A stretch of DNA of 64,000 nt from Anaerolineales bacterium (GTDB lineage: Bacteria > Chloroflexota > Anaerolineae > 4572-78 > J111), in the NCBI GenBank assembly GCA_015075405.1, contig JABTUK010000001.1, positions 1,054,001 to 1,118,000 of the forward strand. Reading direction: 5' to 3'. The translations under genes were made by a program, and so were the position numbers. Below the pieces are notes generated by a model that was not told the origin of the DNA, did not search any database, and saw nothing but the letters and a program-made list of their open reading frames with translations. Shown in pieces: positions 7,619 to 18,033 of the stretch (the stretch's first letter is position 1; each line of letters begins with the position of its first letter).

Positions 7619-7861
7619 TCAGCATGCATGCCGATCATGAATGATTTTACAGATTGTTTCCGCTGTTTCCTCTGGATCCTCATGCTCCCAGACTCGAATG
7701 ACTAGCCAACCTGCTTCGGTGAGGAGACGACTTGTATCGGAGTCACGCTGGCGATTCTGTTCGATCTTGGCTCGCCAGAACTCAGCGTTTGCCTTAGGCC
7801 ACGTCCCATGAATGGGGCACCCATGCCAAAAGCAACCATCAACATAGATAGCCACTTTGAC
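7619..7861 (-). pseudogene. vsr-type endonuclease, 3' part (split by IS)
   Basis: Carboxy-terminal half of a very-short-patch-repair (Vsr) endonuclease: VAIYVDGCFWHGCPIHGTWP, then NAEFWRAKI, NRQRDSDTSRLL and WLVIRVWEHE are the family motifs. It is continuous in frame with the fragment at 9515-9729 once the insertion sequence and one copy of the target duplication are removed; the joined product would be about 149 residues, normal for the family. Vsr nicks at T:G mismatches that arise when 5-methylcytosine deaminates, and such genes accompany C5 methyltransferases like the one at 15.6 kb. As it stands the gene cannot make the whole enzyme. Confidence 0.9.
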
Positions 7862-9514
7862 GGGATGGTTCAATTACGGGCTGAAATAGGTTGACACTTT
7901 TGGTACCTTAAAAAATAAATTATCCTGGCTGGGTAGCCGTCGTGGGTGGGAACAACTGGTCTAACACCTCCGCAAGAGAAAGAGCATCCGACACACCAGC
8001 CAACTCCAGGGGGCTAGAGCCGCTGCGCTTGCCCCGTTCAAACTGGTGGTGGTTCCAGAAGAGTTGGAGCAAGGGTAGTAACCATTGGGGCATGCCCCGG
8101 TGAGTCTGTAAGTGGGGGCGCAGCCAACTGTGCAGGGACTCGGCCAAGCTGGAGGAGCGGTGGAAGAGGCCCAGGGTCTCCCAGACGAGCGGCACGATAG
8201 AGCGGAGGGCTGCGGGCAGGTCAGTCTCAAGGTTCAAGTTCAAGGTGTGGCGGTGTTGCCAGGTCCACAGGACAAAAGCTTGGGTGTCAGCCGCCAAGTT
8301 CTTGAGCAGCGGGGTCAGGTGTTGCTCCAGCCACGCCAACGGGGCCAGCAGTTCGGGTAACTTCTGCTGAAGATCGTCGGCGAAGGTGGTAATGTCTGCC
8401 TGGCCCAATTCCTTGAGCAGGGTGATAGCCGTTTCCAGGGTGGCTTTGGTTGTGGCGACGGCGACCAGTTGATGGCTGGGGGTGAGAGGTTCCAAAGCCT
8501 GCCGCACTTCCGCCAGCAGCCACGACCAGGTGTCGAAGGTGGTGATGGCTTGGGTGGCCTCGACCTGAGCCTGAGCCAAGGGGACCTTGCTGGTGAGCCG
8601 CCGCCCCCGCCGCCGGATCAGTCCTCGCGCTTGCAACTCGGCTCGACGCGCCCGTTCGGCGGTGTCGATGGCCCGGTAGGCGGCGCCTTCCAGCCGTCGG
8701 CTCAGGCGATGAGCTTCTTGCAGCAGGTGAAACAGGTCGGGCCGCAAGGGTAGGGCCAGTTTGGCTTCCCGCACCCCCGCCCGCAGTCCGGTGCCCCCGT
8801 CACAGGCCAGGTCCTGGAACTGGATGCCCCGTTCGACCAAATCCAGGTAAGTCAGCCCCCAGGTCGTCCCATCGCGGTGCTCCGCTGGGGTCAAGTTCAG
8901 CACCAGGAAGGACCGCCCGTCCACCACGGTCAGACACGGTTGCCGGCCTTGAAAGATTTCGTCGGCCTCACCCAGAATCGGCACCGGGATCACCACGGCT
9001 TGATTATAGACCGCGGCCTGCTGACCCGCCGCCTGAAGCGTCTGGCTGATGTAGCCGACCGACCGCTCCACCCCCAACAGCAGTTCCAGCCCGGTTTGGA
9101 TCCCTCGTACGCTCCCGGTTAGCATCGGCCACAGCGCTATGGCCCGCTGGATGAAACTGGAACTGATGTCCAGGCTTTGTTTGAGCGGACAGGGTCCGGG
9201 GTCATGCGGCTGCAAGGTTTCTTGCAAGCTCTGCATCGCTTTATGGCGCCACTCGTACAACAGCGTCCGGGATACCCCATAGTCTTGCGCCAATTGGCTG
9301 GCTCGCCCCCACCCACGTTCGTGGGCGCTCAACACCATCTCGACCGTGATTTGCATCCGGGTTGACAAATCCAACCCAGCTATGCGATACTGTGCCATTA
9401 GGAGCCTCCTTCTTTCAGGTTTGATGTGGTCTCGTAACCCTTATCTTGCCTGAAAAGGTGGCTCCTGTAAACCTATTCTGTTGTTAATGTGTCAACCTAT
9501 TTCTGAACCATCCC
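7862..9514. mobile_element. Complete insertion sequence, 1653 bp, with 8-bp target duplication
   Basis: Both outer ends begin GGGATGGTTCA (reading inward) and share GAAATAGGTTGACAC a few bases further in; the left end has ten extra bases between these blocks. The element is flanked on both sides by ACTTTGAC (7854-7861 and 9515-9522). Removing the element and one ACTTTGAC restores an unbroken vsr reading frame. It carries a single transposase gene. I cannot assign the IS family with confidence. Confidence 0.92.
7920..9398 (-). CDS. Transposase of the insertion sequence
   Basis: 492-residue protein filling the insertion sequence. An amino-terminal helix-turn-helix region (GRASQLAQDYGVSRTLLYEW) would bind the element ends. 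A probable DDE catalytic core follows, with Asp candidates in LTVVDGRSFLV and LACDGGTGLRAG and a Glu candidate in SSSLAESLHSWLRP, followed by the QTHRG tail often seen after the catalytic Glu. Start chosen at the ATG preceded by AGGAGG. No internal stop or frameshift is visible, so the element may still be active. Confidence 0.88.
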   Translation of the reverse strand: MAQYRIAGLDLSTRMQITVEMVLSAHERGWGRASQLAQDYGVSRTLLYEWRHKAMQSLQETLQPHDPGPCPLKQSLDISSSFIQRAIALWPMLTGSVRGIQTGLELLLGVERSVGYISQTLQAAGQQAAVYNQAVVIPVPILGEADEIFQGRQPCLTVVDGRSFLVLNLTPAEHRDGTTWGLTYLDLVERGIQFQDLACDGGTGLRAGVREAKLALPLRPDLFHLLQEAHRLSRRLEGAAYRAIDTAERARRAELQARGLIRRRGRRLTSKVPLAQAQVEATQAITTFDTWSWLLAEVRQALEPLTPSHQLVAVATTKATLETAITLLKELGQADITTFADDLQQKLPELLAPLAWLEQHLTPLLKNLAADTQAFVLWTWQHRHTLNLNLETDLPAALRSIVPLVWETLGLFHRSSSLAESLHSWLRPHLQTHRGMPQWLLPLLQLFWNHHQFERGKRSGSSPLELAGVSDALSLAEVLDQLFPPTTATQPG

Positions 9515-9729
9515 ACTTTGACTGAACGAAAAACTACGTCGGCTCTCCGTCGTACCCCCTTTAGCGGATTGATATTTACTCTATATCGCAATCCTCGCCG
9601 ATGTAAAGCCGAACGTAGTGCCATCTCTGGAGCGGTATCTCGCTGCCGGGCTGCTTTCATTCGGTTGCGAGCAGCAGGAGATGAAGCTGGGGGATTTTTA
9701 TGGGTAAAAACTTCCGCCTTCAACGTCAT
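9515..9729 (-). pseudogene. vsr-type endonuclease, 5' part (split by IS)
   Basis: Amino-terminal half of the Vsr endonuclease: NRMKAARQRDTAPEMALRSA, HRRGLRYRVN and RRRADVVF match the family start, including the Asp of the RADVVF strand expected in the metal site. The reading frame then enters the insertion sequence and ends after about a dozen foreign residues. With the 3' part it reconstructs a full-length gene. Confidence 0.9.
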
Positions 9730-9786: not shown

Positions 9787-10518
9787 TCACTTTTTATTCT
9801 CCATAGCTTTCCACTTGACCCACGGATGAAGTTTCTTTATACGTGGTCCCAATTCTGGTAAGTTAGTCGCATGTCTACTGTAGAAATCCCAGCAATATTT
9901 CTTTCCGTACAACGTCATCAGTAAAGCAAATACTAAAGTTAGGGGGTCGTCAGCTAATAGAGGAAAGGAGGGTTGTGTAACTGGTAACCAGTTTGATATT
10001 TCGATTGGAGGTCCATAACTAATACCTGTTATGAGTTGGGCGTGATAGAAGTCATGAATACCTTCTTTGGCTTCGATTGATTTATCGTTTTCTTTCCTCC
10101 GATATTGTTCGTTTTCAGGACATTCGAAGCGAAACGCTATCCCATAGAGTTTTCGATCCTCTTTATTGAGTCGGGCTAACAAAACATAGAGCCTCATGCT
10201 ATTTATATCTTCACCAAGTTCGCATTTCAACTTCAAAAAGGGTATGAATTCTTGATCCTCCTCTAAGGGAGGAAGGACGAGAATAGCCTTGCGCGTGGAA
10301 AAATCTATATCCAATTTGTCTTCCTGCACATTTAGCCAATCTTCGAATTCCTTCTGTTCGATTAGACGCTAGCCAGCGTAACAATAATTGTTATATAGTT
10401 CTTGGGCCTCGCGTGAGGGTTTGCGTTCACTTTGATTTTCAGGCGACCAGTTACTTTTCTGCTCGTCGTATATAGTCAAAAGGAGGTTGCGTAAGGCACG
10501 CATCGTAGCTTTATCCAT
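9787..10518 (-). pseudogene. Uncharacterised defence-island gene with in-frame amber codon
   Basis: An ATG at 10518 opens a frame that runs 49 codons (MDKATMRALRNLLLTIYDEQ...) to a TAG at 10371-10369 and then continues open in the same frame to 9787, giving a would-be 243-residue protein. The 180 residues after a GTG at 10329 have no recognisable domain; they are rich in charged residues and end in HPWVKWKAMENKK. The sequence around the stop (YCYAG-stop-RLIEQKEFEDWL) suggests a CAG to TAG change. It sits between the receiver-protein gene and vsr on the same strand and probably belonged to that operon. It could also be translated as a shorter protein from the internal start. Confidence 0.6.
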
Positions 10519-10621
10519 TTTCTAAACCCTAACCCGGACAAGCCGGAACCAAATAGGTTTTGAATAACAGACACAAGGGTGTATATTGGCTCAACCCTGA
10601 ACTGAGATAAGGAGTTGAGCG

Positions 10622-12154
10622 ATGGGCACACCCCTGCTTTCCGAAAAATATGCGGCTGAGATGGTCGGTGTATTGAACTGCTATGACCGGGTGATTATCA
10701 GGGGCAATCTGCAGCCGCTGTGTTATGCTCAAGGGATGACGAAATATTTGTACAATCATAACCTTCGCATTTTTAACTATGGTCAGTTTGCCGTCTCGCT
10801 GCGGGATGAAATTCGACAGCGAGCGGAGGCCATCGCGGTGGAGAACCAGGTCGAGATTGAGTTCATCCGCAAGAGCCAGGCATTTCGCAAAGAAGACCGC
10901 ATCCAGGCCATCTTGAGGAAGCGGGGGCCGCAGCCGGGGTTGGTCCATATTTTCGCCGCGATGGAGCGCTGTCCGGCCTACCGGCCCTGGCACGATAAGA
11001 CGAAGGGCAAGACCTATGTGAAAAGCAGTTCGGGTAAATGTTTGCATTACTATTTCTATTTCATCGATGAAGAACTGGGTTTATGTTACCTGCGGGTCCC
11101 GACTTGGTGTCCTTTCGGGCTCCAGTTCTATTTCAACGGTCATAACTGGTTAGCCAGCCAATTGGCGCAGCACAAGATTGCCTTTGAACAGCGCGACAAC
11201 GCTTTTGTACACATTGCCGATTCCGAGCGGGCCAACCAGTTAGCGGCTCAGTTCAATCTGGAAAATTTCCAGGCCAAGTTGGATCAGTTGGCCCAAGCCT
11301 ACTGCCCGGTTGTGACTAAACTTGGCCTTCAGTACCACTGGAGCATTCTGCAAGCCGAGTACGCCACCGACTTAATTTTCAAGTCAACCCAAACCCTACA
11401 AGCCTTTTTCCCACTGCTGTTGGCTGCCCTTATTCAGGCGGTCCAACCCGCCGATATTGCCACCTTTTTGGGTCGCAAGTTGCACGGCAACTACCAGGGC
11501 GAGGCCGGCAGCCGTTATAACCACCGCTGGTTGGGTCGGCGGATTAAACACCAGATGGGACCGGTCGCGATCAAAATGTACGACAAGTTCAACCTCATCC
11601 TGCGCATCGAAACCAGTGTGGCCGATGTTTCCTTTTTTCGACAGTACCGCCAAGTCCACCATCGCGATGGTTCGACTAGTCGGAAATGGGCCCCGCTGAA
11701 GAAAAGCATCTACAGCCTGCCCGCTTTACAAGAACTATTGCAGGCCGCCAACCAGCGTTATCTCAAGTTCATCTCGGCCATCGAAACCCCCGAAGTTGGA
11801 GTCGCCCAGCTGCACCAGTTGGCTGAAACTCAGACCGAAAACGAGCACCGCTACAAGGGTTTTAATCTCTTCGCTGAAGAGGATGCCTCATTGTTTCGCA
11901 CCCTGTTGCGCGGTGAGTTTTTCATCACTGGGTTCACCAACAAAGCCCTCCAGCCCTTGCTCCCCGACAAAAACTCGGCTCAGATCACCCGCCTGCTAGC
12001 CCGGCTGCGGGCACACCATTTGATCAAGAAGGTCGGCCAGCGCTACAAATATTATCTGACCGACTTTGGCCGCCAGGTCGTCAGTATGGCCCTGAAACTC
12101 CGGGAGATAGTGGTTATCCCTGGCTTGGCGAGTAATGTCCAAGTTCAGACTTAA
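10622..12154 (+). CDS. 510-residue protein with C-terminal winged helix; candidate mobile-element protein
   Basis: No named family recognised with certainty. The amino end (LLSEKYAAEMVGVLNCYDRV, then GMTKYLYNHNLRIF) resembles a class of roughly 500-residue proteins that I recall as multi-copy in some bacteria and often labelled MarR-like. The last 80 residues look like a winged helix (ITRLLARLRAHHLIKKVGQR then YKYYLTDFGRQV). A good ribosome site (AAGGAG) precedes the ATG. It is oriented against an otherwise colinear leftward operon and has higher GC than its neighbours, as expected of an insertion. I found no convincing terminal inverted repeats. It could be a transposase of an unusual type or a regulator. 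Confidence 0.6.
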   Translation: MGTPLLSEKYAAEMVGVLNCYDRVIIRGNLQPLCYAQGMTKYLYNHNLRIFNYGQFAVSLRDEIRQRAEAIAVENQVEIEFIRKSQAFRKEDRIQAILRKRGPQPGLVHIFAAMERCPAYRPWHDKTKGKTYVKSSSGKCLHYYFYFIDEELGLCYLRVPTWCPFGLQFYFNGHNWLASQLAQHKIAFEQRDNAFVHIADSERANQLAAQFNLENFQAKLDQLAQAYCPVVTKLGLQYHWSILQAEYATDLIFKSTQTLQAFFPLLLAALIQAVQPADIATFLGRKLHGNYQGEAGSRYNHRWLGRRIKHQMGPVAIKMYDKFNLILRIETSVADVSFFRQYRQVHHRDGSTSRKWAPLKKSIYSLPALQELLQAANQRYLKFISAIETPEVGVAQLHQLAETQTENEHRYKGFNLFAEEDASLFRTLLRGEFFITGFTNKALQPLLPDKNSAQITRLLARLRAHHLIKKVGQRYKYYLTDFGRQVVSMALKLREIVVIPGLASNVQVQT

Positions 12155-12204
12155 TATTCTTGTTTTGTGTGCAAGAATCTCATTGTTTAGGCACTAGCAT
12201 AAAC

Positions 12205-13383
12205 CTAAAGTGAAAATCTTACCCGAGGTTGATATTGAATGCCGTTAATTCCTTTCACGAAACGTCGCGCAAAGGGTGACTCTACTTTCGCAACGAACTC
12301 TTGATAATCGCCTCTATAGAATTTGGATATATCTTCACAGAAGACCCAATCAGGTTTAAAGGTTTCCCAAGGTTCTCGAACTTCGAGAATATCTTGACAG
12401 TCACGTATCTTGTCCCAAAACCAAGCTGGACGCGATAGCCAGAAATTCTTTTGAAATCGAAAGTTCTCAATCTTGCCAATATCAAGCCCCAAGTTGGTAT
12501 AATCAGTAAGTATTGTCGTTTTATTCCAGGACTCGATTTCCTCTTTGGAACCAATTAGTAGACTAGGATATCTTGATACGAGATGGGGGGCATCGACCAA
12601 GATGTTCAGTTCTGGAAACACTGATCTCTCAAGCCACTTGCTAATCCTGGCTGCACCGACTCTGGACAGAATCATTTCATCTGCTTTTTCTGAGTCTTTC
12701 GGACGCATCCCGTTACCCGATTTTTTGACGAAATCCTCAAAAGTTGTTGTGCTGGGTTTTGAATCATCGGATGAACCAATGAATTGGTTGATTGAGCGTG
12801 GTAACCTCTCGAACAGATCTTTGTCAAATCCGAGCACCTCACAGATGGGTTGTTTCAGATTCTGACGAACATCAGCAATACGCAACTCATAGTCTTGTTG
12901 GTACTTAGGCAGTAATGGCCAATACCAGGGCCGAAACTCTTCTCCATCCCCACCCCATAAATTAGGATTGCTCAATTGTTCCCCTCGAATATTCAAATCT
13001 GCAAACGACTCTGGATGACCTTTCAAGGTCAAATCGAAATCAACCTCGTAGTATTGATTCAAAGCTACGATTAGGCCACACGTGGAGAAACAACGAGCTG
13101 AGTATGCTATATCTTCACCAGTGAGAAAGGCATTAGTATCGAACAAATCGTAGTCGATAATTAGAATGTTAGCCTCATCTAGGAGTATAGATTGTCCTGA
13201 CCACTGTCCTTTATCACGAACTTCTCGGCGTCGTTCTTCCAGGGTATTTATTGAATCCGTAAACACTTGCTGATTGAGTGCAATGATTTCGAAGTCTTTC
13301 GCCAGAATGGGTAAAGACTTTAATTTTTCTTTTAGATCATTTGCCCATTTCTCATCGTCGTCATATATTAATATCTTGCTCAT
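12205..13383 (-). CDS. Receiver-domain protein of the defence-like operon
   Basis: 392-residue protein whose first 130 residues resemble a response-regulator receiver: the acidic cluster YDDDE at residues 7-11 and LIIDYD with Asp77 as the candidate phospho-acceptor. The spacing between them is longer than in ordinary receivers. The remaining 260 residues have no recognisable domain and lack an obvious DNA-binding motif; late segments WLSRPAWFWDKIRD and FKPDWVFCEDISKFYRGDY are Trp/Phe-rich. The ATG at 13383 has GGAGGG at good spacing and overlaps the upstream stop as ATGA, so it is preferred over an ATG at 13398. Coupling to the ATPase/kinase-like protein suggests the two form a signalling pair. 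Confidence 0.75.
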   Translation of the reverse strand: MSKILIYDDDEKWANDLKEKLKSLPILAKDFEIIALNQQVFTDSINTLEERRREVRDKGQWSGQSILLDEANILIIDYDLFDTNAFLTGEDIAYSARCFSTCGLIVALNQYYEVDFDLTLKGHPESFADLNIRGEQLSNPNLWGGDGEEFRPWYWPLLPKYQQDYELRIADVRQNLKQPICEVLGFDKDLFERLPRSINQFIGSSDDSKPSTTTFEDFVKKSGNGMRPKDSEKADEMILSRVGAARISKWLERSVFPELNILVDAPHLVSRYPSLLIGSKEEIESWNKTTILTDYTNLGLDIGKIENFRFQKNFWLSRPAWFWDKIRDCQDILEVREPWETFKPDWVFCEDISKFYRGDYQEFVAKVESPFARRFVKGINGIQYQPRVRFSL

Positions 13384-15545
13384 CGGATTTCCCTCCAACT
13401 AAGTGAAAGTGCCGTACTGAAGCCATCGTCAGGTTCTACAAAACCAACCTGGCAACCAATTCGGTCCGCGAGTAGCCGCACGATTGTCAACCCCAGGCCC
13501 GTACCGCCGTACCCTAGCGCCTGTCGCGTCGGTGAGATTTTGGCTTCTCGCTCAAATGGTTGAAATAGCCTCTCGGCATCCTTTAGGTTGACCCCATATC
13601 CCGTATCTTGAATCAAGATCTCTCGTTTCCTACCGTTTGTCCGAGAACTGATTTCTAACAATCGTTTGTCGGAATCAAGCATGGCATTGAAGGCATTGGT
13701 GAATATGTTCTGGAAAATTGCCCCCCATTCGGCCAGCGTAGCTTCCGGGAGTCGTAGTTCTGGATCAACCTGACTTACATCTACGTCGATCCCTCTGGCC
13801 AGAAATCGTGTCTGCCGCTTGATGTCTTTGAGTACCGGAGCAGCCCGAAATCTAGTCCGAGTTCGAATATTCTCAGCATCGGCCAAGTAGTCGAATAGGG
13901 CATTGGTTGCCTCAGCTCGTTCCAGCCATTTCGCCAAATCTTTACCCAATCTTTCCAGGGATTGTTGCAACTGTTGGTCGTCTGTCCGAATCCTATCAAT
14001 CCGGTCAATGATATCACGAATAGCAGTGAATTGCTTGTGCAACTCGTGTTGGTAGGCCACAGCCGAGATACCGGCCGTAGCCAATGCGCCTAGTAGCCCT
14101 GTCTCTTCTTGCACTCGGGCTTCACTGGCGACAGCGATTTCGGTTGCTTCCTGTACTTTTGCTCGGATTTCAGTGAAGACCTCTTTGGGTATTTGAGGCT
14201 CATAATAATCTAAGACTTCCTCAACCCTCTCGAACCTCTCAGAAGTCGTTTCAATAGCTCTCTTGGAGAGGGTTTCCTCATATCGTCTTCGGGCTTCCTC
14301 CATTGCATACAAATCAATCGCATATCGAACCATCGACCGCAAGTCCTCAAATGCCTTACTGTCTGCCAGACGATCTCGAGTGATCATGATCTTGAGGCCT
14401 GGCTCGACCGACGTATTGACGTTTACCACACCAAAGATGCGTTCCAACGTGGGTAAATACCTCAATCGCTGCGTGTGAGCATACTGTTCTTGGAGTTCTT
14501 TGGGTAGGAGATCTGATAGAAATACTCGATGTGAATGGTCGATTTCAAGCCGCAACCAGTCATTAGTGGGAATTCCATAATAGGGTAACCGAAATCCCCC
14601 GTCATAGACATGAACCCCCCCATGTTGCTCGAAGTATTTCCTTGCATCTTCCACCTTAAGGCCATAGGGTTGTCGATTTTTGAGCGTGAAGATTCTTATC
14701 TCGAAATTGCCGTCTTTAAGATTTTGTTGAGAATCATAAAATCCGTTATTATGAGGTAAATCTGCGATACAATATTCATATCGTTGTGGTAAGCCATCAG
14801 CAAACTCAATTGCAAGCTTGACGTTGCCCTGCTGGTTCTCACCAACCAACCGCGCTGTCCAAACATCCAAGATAGCACGCATTTGATCATTGAAGACCCT
14901 CTCGAATTTCTTCTGACTCGATTGGAACTCAATGACGAAACTACTTTTTGAATCATTTCCCTCAGTAAAGTTCCGAAATGGAGGTTGTAGCCACCATAAC
15001 TCGCGGGCTAAGCCCTCAATAGCGGAGACTGTCCATCGCTGTTTTAGCCCACTCAAGACGAGTAAGGTCCCTTTTTCGAATTCGGGTGAATTGTGGTGGC
15101 GTGTGTAACGAACACTTGCATTCGTGAGATTCCCAGCTCTAACGGCTTCAGACCAGTCCACATATGCTTCTAGCCATTCCCCCTTGCTTTCTTGTGGCAC
15201 AGTATAAAGCCTCAATTCACTCGCCAGAAACTGGACAGACAGCCGCCCTACTCCTTTCGAACCAGTCATCGCACGTTTCAAATATTTGGAGACCCGTTTT
15301 TGATCTTTATGCGTTGTACCAATGCGCATCCAGAAATTCTTGAAATCATTGAAGTCCATACCGTGACCATCATCCTGCACTTCAATCCGATCCTGATCAG
15401 GCAGCAAACGGATGGTTACAGTATGAGCATCAGCATCGTACCCATTTTTGACCAATTCAGCTAAGGCAATATGGGGCTTGCCTACCAGTCGCTCGCCCAG
15501 TTCTCGTAACAATGCCGAGTCGATAGTGAACTTCAATTGTGGCAT
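13380..15545 (-). CDS. Dual GHKL ATPase: MORC/MutL-like N-terminus plus histidine-kinase-like C-terminus
   Basis: 721 residues with two ATP-binding folds of the GHKL superfamily. The first has E30, N34 and D37 in LAELVKNGYDADA, the DDGHGM loop at 58-63 and GSKGVGRLS at 95-103, as in Hsp90/MutL/MORC proteins. A middle region follows, then a helical segment near residue 500 with AYQHELHKQF, which resembles a histidine-kinase phospho-acceptor helix. The second ATPase has NIFTNAFNAM, DTGYGV (about 647) and GGTGLGLTIV (about 680). MORC-like ATPases are known from restriction-modification neighbourhoods (paraMORC families). The gene lies 17 bases after a C5 methyltransferase and overlaps a receiver-domain gene by four bases, consistent with a sensor that controls or powers a restriction complex. 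Confidence 0.82.
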   Translation of the reverse strand: MPQLKFTIDSALLRELGERLVGKPHIALAELVKNGYDADAHTVTIRLLPDQDRIEVQDDGHGMDFNDFKNFWMRIGTTHKDQKRVSKYLKRAMTGSKGVGRLSVQFLASELRLYTVPQESKGEWLEAYVDWSEAVRAGNLTNASVRYTRHHNSPEFEKGTLLVLSGLKQRWTVSAIEGLARELWWLQPPFRNFTEGNDSKSSFVIEFQSSQKKFERVFNDQMRAILDVWTARLVGENQQGNVKLAIEFADGLPQRYEYCIADLPHNNGFYDSQQNLKDGNFEIRIFTLKNRQPYGLKVEDARKYFEQHGGVHVYDGGFRLPYYGIPTNDWLRLEIDHSHRVFLSDLLPKELQEQYAHTQRLRYLPTLERIFGVVNVNTSVEPGLKIMITRDRLADSKAFEDLRSMVRYAIDLYAMEEARRRYEETLSKRAIETTSERFERVEEVLDYYEPQIPKEVFTEIRAKVQEATEIAVASEARVQEETGLLGALATAGISAVAYQHELHKQFTAIRDIIDRIDRIRTDDQQLQQSLERLGKDLAKWLERAEATNALFDYLADAENIRTRTRFRAAPVLKDIKRQTRFLARGIDVDVSQVDPELRLPEATLAEWGAIFQNIFTNAFNAMLDSDKRLLEISSRTNGRKREILIQDTGYGVNLKDAERLFQPFEREAKISPTRQALGYGGTGLGLTIVRLLADRIGCQVGFVEPDDGFSTALSLSWREIR

Positions 15546-15562
15546 GGCTGAAAAATTCCAGT

Positions 15563-16618
15563 TTATTGGAGATGAACACGTAAATGTTGCGCAATGCTTC
15601 GGGCAATAACTCGTCCCAATTCTACGGGTACAGCGTTGCCCATATGTCGCCCCATAACCTTTAAGTGGATGGGTTTATCTGGAGCTACAAATTCATAATT
15701 CATAGGGAAGGTCTGTAGTAAGGCTCCTTCACGTAGTGAGATAGCGCGATCTTGCTCAGGATGACCGAAACGGCCGTTACCAAAGCCATAGAATTGAGTA
15801 GTAATGGTAGGAGATGGAAGATGCCATTCCATTCGTCCGTAGACACTAACATACCCATCTCCACTAACCTTTCGATGACAAGTAGCAATCAATTCTTTGT
15901 CCCAGTCTCGCCAAGTCCCGCCTGGTTTCGACGCGCGAATCCGGCGCATATTCAGTTCTGATAGTTGGCTGGACCGATGCAATGGGTCTTTTTCACTCAC
16001 ACCACCAGCCTTGATTGGCTCCATCTGACCAATCGTTTCCCATACGGTTCTATATTGATCTGGCGAATGTGTCGGCGGAAGGATATCAATCTCACTATAT
16101 TTGGATGCAAACATTACCAATCGGGTGCGTTGTTGGGGAATGCCGTAATCAGGACAATAGACTTCTGGAAAGGAAGAGACATAGTACCCATTGGCTTTCA
16201 ATTTGGCTACGAAATCACTGTATACCTTTCCTTTTCTGTACTTGACCAAGTCGGGAACGTTCTCCATAGAGACGATGTCTGGCTTGACTTCACAAATCAG
16301 ATCACCGAATTCATCTAGGAGACGCCACTTTTCGTCCTTCTTACCCTTTTTTTTGTTATAAGAGGAATAAGGTTGGCACGGAGCGCATCCTACCAAAATT
16401 TTGGTGTGCCCATGTGGATAGAGGTCGAGGATTTCCTCTGCTATCAAATCTTCGATCTTTTTATGGATGAAATAAGCGCCTCTGTTGTTAGTTTCATAAG
16501 CATATTTGCAGGAGGTATCGGCATCGATTCCTGCGATGACTTTGAACCCTTCTAAAACGAACCCATGGGTCAGTCCCCCTGCACCACAAAACATATCTAT
16601 GACTGAGCAGTTCTCCAT
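15563..16618 (-). CDS. DNA (cytosine-5-)methyltransferase
   Basis: 351-residue C5 methyltransferase that transfers a methyl group from S-adenosylmethionine to cytosine in a specific DNA sequence. Motif I is FCGAGG at residues 10-15. Motif IV is PCQPYS with the catalytic Cys81. ENV of motif VI, QQRTRLVM of motif VIII and the late GNAVPVELG of motif X follow in normal order. The target-recognition region is short. It starts four bases after the XRE regulator ends. With the vsr fragments in the same block it fits a cytosine-methylation restriction or defence module; the recognition sequence cannot be read from the protein. Confidence 0.95.
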   Translation of the reverse strand: MENCSVIDMFCGAGGLTHGFVLEGFKVIAGIDADTSCKYAYETNNRGAYFIHKKIEDLIAEEILDLYPHGHTKILVGCAPCQPYSSYNKKKGKKDEKWRLLDEFGDLICEVKPDIVSMENVPDLVKYRKGKVYSDFVAKLKANGYYVSSFPEVYCPDYGIPQQRTRLVMFASKYSEIDILPPTHSPDQYRTVWETIGQMEPIKAGGVSEKDPLHRSSQLSELNMRRIRASKPGGTWRDWDKELIATCHRKVSGDGYVSVYGRMEWHLPSPTITTQFYGFGNGRFGHPEQDRAISLREGALLQTFPMNYEFVAPDKPIHLKVMGRHMGNAVPVELGRVIARSIAQHLRVHLQ

Positions 16619-16622
16619 TACT

Positions 16623-16949
16623 TTACCTCCCTTCTACCCAAGCACGTAATGTAGAGAGGGCTAATTTGCGCTGTTCCGGACTGAGTTGTTGAAAAAGATG
16701 AGCCACTTCTTCTATCTCCAGATCTGGTTGCGGTGCGGGTGGTAACAATCCAGCCTGTCGAAATACAATTTCCGGGGAATAATTCAAAGCACGAGCGATA
16801 GCTAAACACACCTCTGGACCGGGCCTACGAGTTCGATTGAGAACATTACTGAGTGTACCTGAGTTGATCTTTGCTCTTTTGGCTAATTCAGCGGTGTTCC
16901 AATTTCTCTCTCTTAATTGAACTTCGATCCATTCTGTGAAATCTTCCAT
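16623..16949 (-). CDS. XRE-family helix-turn-helix regulator
   Basis: 108-residue regulator. The helix-turn-helix is NTAELAKRAKINSGTLSNVL, followed by RPGPEVCLAIARALNYSPE, typical of the Xre/Cro fold. The tail is predicted helical. It is the first gene of the leftward block and is placed as controller proteins of restriction-modification systems often are, directly before the methyltransferase. Inverted repeats upstream at 17020-17046 are candidate binding sites. Confidence 0.88.
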   Translation of the reverse strand: MEDFTEWIEVQLRERNWNTAELAKRAKINSGTLSNVLNRTRRPGPEVCLAIARALNYSPEIVFRQAGLLPPAPQPDLEIEEVAHLFQQLSPEQRKLALSTLRAWVEGR

Positions 16950-17319: not shown

Positions 17320-18033
17320 ATGACAGACTATCTAACCACCAGCGAAGCCACTCGCCTGGCCGAACTGGAAACAGTCATCGAGCGAGGGCTGCAAACCTTT
17401 ATTGAGGTGGGCAGCGCCCTGATGGAAATCCGCAACTCCCGCCTGTACCGGCAAACCCACACCTCCTTTGAGGAATATTGCCAGGAACGCTGGGACCTGC
17501 GGAAAAGCCGGACGTACCAGTTGATGGATGCAGCCGAGGTGGTCGAAAACCTGAAAAGTTCCACAATTGTGGACCTTTCAAGCGGGCCTATCCCTCTGCC
17601 CATCAACGAGGCCCAGGCCCGGCCGCTGGCCAGGCTGGACGTGGATATGCAGCGCCAGGTCTGGCAAAAAGCTGTCGAAACCGCTCCCCAGGGCAGAATC
17701 ACGGCCCGGCATGTCGAAACGATTGTCAGAGAATTTGAGTCTGCCGAGGCCGAACCTGACTCCTTTGCCTGTCCCCGCTGCGGCCACCGGGCGGTCCAAC
17801 TCAACGAAGGAGTCATCTGCCTCAACGAGGCCTGCCAGGCCAGTTGGGCCAGCCGGGCCGAATTTGAGGCTGAAGCGGGCATGGGTTACAGGGACGAAAC
17901 CGAGCTGCTGCGAACCCACTTGAAAACAGAATTGATCAAACTGATCAACCAACTGCCGCCGGAGCAGTTAAAGGAATTTGCCGCCTGGCTGGCCGAAGCC
18001 AAAGAGAGGCTGGCCGCCGAAGTTCACTCATAA
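17320..18033 (+). CDS. Uncharacterised protein with zinc ribbon, mobile-element type
   Basis: 237 residues, family not named. The first 130 residues are helical and resemble proteins carried by plasmids and phages that bear a ParB/KorB-like helical module (SFEEYCQERWDLRKSRTYQL, then PINEAQARPLARL). A zinc ribbon follows, CPRCG then CLNEAC. The last 40 residues are an amphipathic helix (LPPEQLKEFAAWLAEAKERL). A clear AGGAGG precedes the ATG. It is next to the tRNA remnant, which supports an accessory origin. Confidence 0.65.
   Translation: MTDYLTTSEATRLAELETVIERGLQTFIEVGSALMEIRNSRLYRQTHTSFEEYCQERWDLRKSRTYQLMDAAEVVENLKSSTIVDLSSGPIPLPINEAQARPLARLDVDMQRQVWQKAVETAPQGRITARHVETIVREFESAEAEPDSFACPRCGHRAVQLNEGVICLNEACQASWASRAEFEAEAGMGYRDETELLRTHLKTELIKLINQLPPEQLKEFAAWLAEAKERLAAEVHS

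What the first reader, a model, noticed from the sequence alone, without database searches (positions are those of the whole stretch)
12205..16949. Candidate undescribed defence system: XRE, C5 methyltransferase, dual GHKL ATPase/kinase and receiver protein
Four leftward genes are joined by gaps of 4 and 17 bases and a 4-base overlap. The third has both a MORC/MutL-like ATPase (E30, N34, DDGHGM, GSKGVGRLS) and a histidine-kinase-like ATPase (DTGYGV, GGTGLGLTIV) with a His-containing helix near residue 500. The fourth begins with a receiver-like domain (Asp77). MORC-like ATPases in restriction neighbourhoods are known (paraMORC work; also the MutL/Z1/AIPR defence type), but here the ATPase is fused to kinase parts and coupled to a receiver, as if restriction were gated by phosphorelay. 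No helicase or Z1 gene is seen. The block is more AT-rich than its surroundings, as expected of acquired DNA.
Basis: partly seen in the sequence, partly recalled or inferred. Interest (0 to 1): 0.85.

Follow-up and report, generated by a model that had tools for sequence, protein, structure and literature searches.

The report
Broken methylation-linked kinase–receiver defence cassette
A six-gene mobile cassette, probably an anti-phage defence that marks its own DNA by methylation and passes an alarm from a kinase-like ATPase to a receiver protein, was seen here as four genes because two jumping elements have damaged its other end; its general kind was predicted in 2021, but this branch and its extra component are new.

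Summary
The four genes and motifs are real and at the stated coordinates. The locus is larger than reported: a fifth gene (DN, 9787-10518, one in-frame stop) and a sixth (Vsr endonuclease) lie to the left, cut off by a 1.67-kb multicopy element (10528-12196) and, inside Vsr, by an IS (~7862-9512). A relative of the same family keeps the intact order XRE–C5-MTase–dual GHKL–receiver–DN–Vsr. 'Undescribed' is only partly right: adjacent paraMORC-kinase/receiver pairs beside C5-MTases and Vsr were predicted in 2021 (HEF_HK/Response_reg_2), but these proteins miss both Pfam models and form a separate, fully supported clade of 16 loci, each with kinase, receiver, DN and C5-MTase; DN is new. Several copies are cargo of tailed prophages; one sits beside type I R-M genes. 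Best reading: a mobile, methylation-linked defence in which a DNA-clamp ATPase signals by His-Asp transfer to a receiver effector. The effector chemistry is unknown, no phosphotransfer has been shown, and this copy is probably partly dead.

The parts
16623..16949 (-). XRE/Cro-type helix-turn-helix regulator (108 aa), first gene; 51% identical homologue in the intact relative
15563..16618 (-). C5-cytosine DNA methyltransferase (351 aa), PF00145 E 7e-57, with PC and ENV motifs
13380..15545 (-). dual GHKL protein (721 aa): N-terminal paraMORC-like ATPase plus C-terminal histidine-kinase module
15183..15473 (-). N-terminal HATPase_c_3 domain (residues 25-121)
14046..14048 (-). His500 of the H-E motif, candidate phosphorylation site; His in 81 of 81 homologues
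13440..13718 (-). C-terminal HATPase_c domain (residues 610-702)
12205..13383 (-). receiver-like protein (392 aa) with an unknown output domain (invariant D269, H272, E355, D356 in TTG-start numbering)
13153..13155 (-). acceptor Asp (Asp77 from the ATG); Asp in 74 of 74 adjacent receiver-like proteins
10528..12196 (+). inserted mobile element (1669 bp; 510-aa ORF at 10622-12154; seven copies with an identical ORF in the genome) between the receiver and DN genes
9787..10518 (-). fifth operon gene, DN, 61% identical to the intact 236-aa homologue; in-frame TAG at 10369-10371
9513..9729 (-). N-terminal part of the sixth gene, Vsr endonuclease (82% identical over 62 residues to the intact relative)
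7862..9512 (-). insertion sequence (492-aa ORF 7920-9398) inside Vsr, flanked by a 10-bp direct repeat GTCAAAGTGG (9513-9522 and 7852-7861)
7628..7861 (-). C-terminal part of Vsr (77% identical over 78 residues)

Best explanation
A mobile, methylation-linked anti-phage (R-M-like) cassette of six genes, damaged in this genome. The C5-methyltransferase marks self DNA, and Vsr (a mismatch glycosylase in one relative) repairs deaminated methylcytosines. The paraMORC half of the dual GHKL protein acts as an ATP-driven DNA clamp or sensor. Its C-terminal kinase half phosphorylates the Asp of the neighbouring receiver protein via His500. The phosphorylated receiver, with its own output domain and the DN partner, carries out or releases the defence, and XRE controls expression. 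Shown: gene content, order, domain anatomy, invariant active-site residues, recurrence, mobile setting, damage in the window. Inferred: defence function, sensing of unmodified DNA, phosphotransfer, and the effector roles of the receiver output domain and DN.
For: Order XRE–MT–HK–RR–DN–Vsr intact in a same-family relative, L006/L007. Sixteen loci in one clade (support 1.0) all have HK, RR, DN and MT, and Vsr was detected in 12; six of these loci are viral contigs (L044-L049) that played no part in building the profiles. His500, both N-box Asn, the G-box Gly and the N-terminal E30/N34/D58/GSKGVGR set are invariant in 81 of 81 homologues chosen without reference to His or Asp. The receiver Asp is invariant in 74 of 74 adjacent proteins. 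Receiver fold by structure. Prophage cargo: near gpD, tape-measure, endolysin or integrase genes in L012 and L044-L048. Type I R-M genes beside L007. The N-terminal ATPase resembles the BbrUII/HgiDII restriction enzymes (E 6.9e-27). Vsr is fused to the MT in several loci or replaced by an HhH-GPD glycosylase, which fits a repair role.
Against: No phage-challenge or phosphotransfer data exist. No recognisable restriction nuclease is present; DN and the receiver output domain match nothing known. In this clade the receiver has Asn instead of Thr/Ser after beta-4 and no conserved Lys, which is atypical for phosphorylation-driven switching. Many wider homologues have no C5-MTase within the fetched DNA (38 of 81 do), so methylation is not the core of the wider family. 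The window copy has a broken DN and a split Vsr.
Confidence: 0.55

Rival explanations
1. The histidine-kinase and receiver folds are used structurally (nucleotide-dependent dimerisation and docking) with no phosphotransfer: the pair works as a MutL/MORC-like ATP-gated complex.
For: This clade's receiver lacks the Thr/Ser and Lys switch residues. Working BbrUII/HgiDII enzymes of the same ATPase type have no kinase module.
Against: His500, the N box and the G boxes are invariant in 81 of 81 homologues, and the receiver Asp in 74 of 74 proteins whose mean column identity is only about 10%. In the wider family Ser or Thr is commonest at the switch position.
Confidence: 0.2
2. A conventional R-M system with an unusual cutter: the Vsr-type protein is the restriction nuclease and the GHKL protein its ATP-driven loader; the receiver is accessory.
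For: Iyer et al. 2008 (PMC2292703) proposed Vsr-superfamily nucleases as endonucleases of MORC systems. Vsr was detected in 12 of 16 clade loci.
Against: Vsr is fused to the methyltransferase in several loci and replaced by an HhH-GPD base-excision glycosylase in L008, as expected of a repair partner of 5-methylcytosine. DN and the receiver are more constant than Vsr.
Confidence: 0.13
3. A regulatory two-component system tied to DNA methylation (epigenetic or stress gene control), not a defence system.
For: The homologous genes came to notice because they were induced in planta in Pectobacterium (PMC8011034). Kinase and receiver anatomy.
Against: No DNA-binding output domain is recognised in the receiver. 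Carriage by prophages and beside R-M genes, and sparse patchy occurrence, fit conflict systems better.
Confidence: 0.1

Closest known systems
HEF_HK / Response_reg_2 two-component-like systems (Bellieny-Rabelo et al. 2021, PMC8011034; PF19191, PF19192)
   Same: HATPase_c_3 + His helix + HATPase_c protein directly before a receiver-like protein, with a C5-MTase upstream and often Vsr downstream; invariant His-Glu and Asp.
   Different: Window proteins match neither Pfam model; the kinase is 721 against ~1000 aa and the receiver 392 against ~555-617 aa with an unrelated output domain; a DN gene is added; Thr and Lys switch residues absent; separate clade in the kinase tree.
paraMORC ATPases of R-M neighbourhoods (Iyer et al. 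2008, PMC2292703)
   Same: N-terminal GHKL ATPase with intact motifs in an R-M-like operon with a cytosine methylase and Vsr.
   Different: Fused to a histidine-kinase module and paired with a receiver; no helicase.
BbrUII/HgiDII restriction enzymes (GTCGAC), NCBIfam NF050001
   Same: N-terminal GHKL domain aligns (hhalign 99.5%, E 6.9e-23); their partner is a C5-MTase (PMC5867850).
   Different: Their C-terminal half carries a PD-(D/E)XK-like motif instead of a kinase module; no receiver partner.
GHKL-Shedu VcSduA (PMC12137116)
   Same: GHKL ATPase domain controlling an anti-phage effector; experimentally defensive.
   Different: Single protein with a DUF4263 nuclease; no kinase, receiver or methylase.
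Detocs (two-component-type defence; own knowledge, not tested here)
   Same: Precedent for His-Asp signalling gating an anti-phage effector.
   Different: Different proteins and effector; no methylase or paraMORC domain.

Membership tests
HEF_HK / Response_reg_2 systems | HEF_HK (PF19191) match in the kinase | tested here: not met
   No hit up to E 1 for P0001; true members score 6e-7 to 2e-27.
HEF_HK / Response_reg_2 systems | Response_reg_2 (PF19192) match in the receiver | tested here: not met
   No hit for P0002, in its genome or in seven relatives' genomes up to E 1; hhalign of the receiver parts only E 1.9e-4, probability 47%.
HEF_HK / Response_reg_2 systems | HATPase_c_3, then conserved His-acidic helix, then HATPase_c in one protein | tested here: met
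   hhalign to HEF_HK proteins 99.8%, E 8e-30.
HEF_HK / Response_reg_2 systems | Kinase gene adjacent to receiver gene, with C5-MTase nearby | tested here: met
HEF_HK / Response_reg_2 systems | Conserved Asp, Thr and Lys of the receiver | tested here: not met
   Asp invariant, but Asn at the Thr position in all nine and no conserved Lys.
HEF_HK / Response_reg_2 systems | Common clade in the kinase tree | tested here: not met
   Three HEF_HK proteins form their own clade (1.0), apart from the 16-member window clade (1.0).
paraMORC | N-terminal GHKL ATPase with intact motifs in an R-M neighbourhood | tested here: met
paraMORC | S5 domain after the GHKL domain | tested here: inconclusive
   Homologous region to residue ~415 shared with HEF_HK proteins; no S5 model matched.
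BbrUII/HgiDII restriction enzymes | Full-length match above the curated cut-off, with PD-(D/E)XK C-terminus | tested here: not met
   94 bits against a cut-off of 550, only residues 5-181; kinase module instead.
Canonical two-component system | Response_reg (PF00072) match in the receiver protein | tested here: not met
   No hit for P0002; 7 of 67 wider relatives match.
Canonical two-component system | Invariant phospho-accepting His and Asp | tested here: met
   81/81 His; 74/74 Asp.
Canonical two-component system | Phosphotransfer from His to Asp | not testable with these tools
   Needs a biochemical assay.
MutL/Z1/AIPR defence type | Z1/AIPR or helicase partners | tested here: not met
   None among the operon genes or the flanking window proteins scanned.
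Anti-phage defence system | Protects against phage | not testable with these tools
   Only the prophage and R-M setting is seen; PADLOC has no model for the receiver or DN.

The most novel reading that the evidence does not exclude
Adjacent paraMORC-kinase/receiver pairs form a large, mostly unannotated superfamily of mobile immune relays, far wider than the HEF_HK/Response_reg_2 set, in which one conserved His-Asp module drives many unrelated receiver outputs; the window clade is one branch with its own effector parts (receiver output domain plus DN), in which methylation status is read out by phosphosignalling instead of direct cleavage.
Probability: 0.4. Interest if true: 0.82.

Novelty: new variant of a known kind. 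Interest (0 to 1): 0.58.

Why it matters
The 2021 prediction of a two-component-like partner of R-M systems has, in the library searched, no experimental follow-up. The strict conservation of His, Asp and both ATP sites across a highly diverged and mostly unannotated set makes it directly testable. If right, bacteria couple a DNA-clamp ATPase of the MORC/MutL kind to phosphorelay signalling in immunity, with bearing on how eukaryotic MORC proteins evolved. The intact relative and the prophage-borne copies give compact test constructs, and DN and the receiver output domain are candidate new effectors.

Tried and rejected
(1) Membership of Response_reg_2/HEF_HK: tested, not met. (2) The 510-aa gene at 10622 as part of the system: rejected, it is a multicopy element. 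(3) A hidden nuclease in the receiver output domain or in DN: no match by profile or fold; the DN model is weak (pLDDT 70), so this is not a proof of absence. (4) The TTG start of the receiver ORF (397 aa): rejected for the ATG with a Shine-Dalgarno; the conserved 'MEG' of the upstream stretch is that Shine-Dalgarno sequence. (5) Relation of the C-terminal part of HgiDII-type enzymes to the receiver or DN: none. (6) Receiver and DN relatives in viral contigs by their own patterns: none found; the kinase scan did find them. (7) DN in plasmids by tblastn: none, although a divergent DN lies in the M. arabiense plasmid. (8) The DN profile used included L003, so L003's own DN match is circular and is not counted in the 16.
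Full report
OBSERVATION. The four ORFs, their spacing and motifs are as described. The receiver gene starts at the ATG at 13383 (392 aa; Shine-Dalgarno GGAGGG), giving the 4-base overlap. GC over 12-17 kb is 0.44-0.48.

THE LOCUS IS LARGER AND DAMAGED. A search of 100 related genomes found one other genome of the same family with the receiver gene. There (L005/L006, the same record as L007, an Anaerolineae MAG) the order is XRE–MT–HK–RR–a 236-aa gene (here DN)–Vsr. In the window, DN lies at 9787-10518, 61% identical, with a TAG in frame at 10369-10371. Between RR and DN sits a 1669-bp element (10528-12196) whose 510-aa ORF occurs seven times identically in the genome; the four copies compared share the same ends, with no visible target duplication. 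Vsr is split: N part to 9513, C part 7628-7861, separated by an IS flanked by a 10-bp direct repeat GTCAAAGTGG. The first four genes look intact. Whether the DN stop is a sequencing error cannot be told here.

RELATIVES. A genome scan (pattern-limited, hence a lower bound) gave nine loci: Chloroflexi, Poribacteria, Blastocatellia, Accumulibacter, Sphingomonas and three Actinomycetota genera, besides a Mycolicibacterium plasmid. Samples of 400 Chloroflexota, 346 Actinomycetes and 337 Alphaproteobacteria genomes showed no further copies beyond those already in hand: rare and patchy. A kinase-profile scan of viral contigs gave 71 loci. In a tree of 81 kinases the window clade (16 members, support 1.0) is exactly the set with RR, DN and MT together (L003's DN match is circular and not counted). 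Vsr was detected in 12 of the 16, including copies fused to MT; L008 has an HhH-GPD glycosylase instead; L009 runs into a contig end.

Selection was by the N-terminal motifs KNxYDAD or ELGERLV, not by His, Asp or neighbours. His500, N613, N617, G681, G683, G685, E30, N34, D58, G95, K97, G98 and G100 are invariant in 81 of 81. For 73 of 78 kinases an ORF begins within -70 to +150 bases of the kinase end; two of the other five (L049, L060) also have a receiver-like gene overlapping the kinase end. In the 67 proteins aligned Asp82 is the only invariant column, and position 13 is Asp or Glu in all; the seven left out of that alignment also have the Asp, 74 of 74. Only 7 of 67 match Response_reg and one Response_reg_2. 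At the switch position after beta-4 the wider family has mostly Ser or Thr, the window clade Asn.

MECHANISM. The N-terminal ATPase aligns with the BbrUII/HgiDII enzymes, which carry a PD-(D/E)XK-like motif (GRVDIKY...IIVELKK) where this protein has a kinase module. The simplest reading is that the ATPase handles DNA while output is passed to the receiver. Vsr fused to the methylase, or replaced by a glycosylase, points to repair of deaminated 5-methylcytosine. That leaves the receiver output domain (invariant D269, H272, E355, D356) and DN (a G-x-R-[FY]-E ... H-x3-H-x-Q pattern) as effector candidates, without known relatives. Steps after DNA handling are inference.

SETTING. L045, L046, L048 and L012 carry the cassette near the gpD hub gene of tailed prophages, L047 near a tape-measure gene and L044 near an endolysin gene; L012, from a genome collection, also has an integrase. 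Viral contigs are phage-like by selection, so L012 is the independent case. L007 adjoins hsdM and hsdS. Prophage cargo sites are known defence hotspots (PMC9122126).

PRIOR ART. PMC8011034 predicted the HEF_HK/Response_reg_2 pairs (91.6% linkage in 644 regions) with C5-MTase and Vsr. Three such loci found here have MT–HK–RR, one with Vsr after it. The kinases are homologous, the receiver parts only weakly similar and the output domains unrelated. Hence 'new variant of a known kind'.

Noticed in passing
window 10528-12196: Mobile element of 1669 bp with a 510-aa ORF that has no convincing Pfam, NCBIfam or PADLOC match; seven copies with an identical ORF plus diverged relatives in the genome; ends CCTAACCCGG... 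and ...GGCACTA, no obvious target duplication. Possibly an undescribed transposase family.
   Followed up: partly
window 7920-9398: 492-aa ORF of an IS with TGAACCATCC-type inverted ends and a 10-bp target duplication; no Pfam match. The tRNA-Ala call at 8961-9057 lies inside it and is probably false.
   Followed up: partly
L044-L114, genes directly after the kinase: Receiver-like proteins of 209-646 aa with very different C-terminal parts follow nearly every paraMORC-kinase; most match no receiver model. A large unannotated family.
   Followed up: partly
L008:10092-10814: HhH-GPD base-excision glycosylase in the place of Vsr, an apparent functional replacement next to the C5-MTase operon.
   Followed up: partly
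L001:7942-8900: Two small genes between the divergent MT-Vsr fusion and the kinase in the M. arabiense plasmid look by eye like a PD-(D/E)XK and a GIY-YIG protein.
   Followed up: no
L003:11389-13038: Rhizobium sp. TH2 plasmid pTH2c: distant kinase-receiver pair followed by a DN-like gene with the H-x3-H-x-Q pattern and a GIY-YIG nuclease.
   Followed up: no
window 17320-18033: 237-aa ORF just upstream of the cassette, on the other strand, with no confident family match.
   Followed up: no
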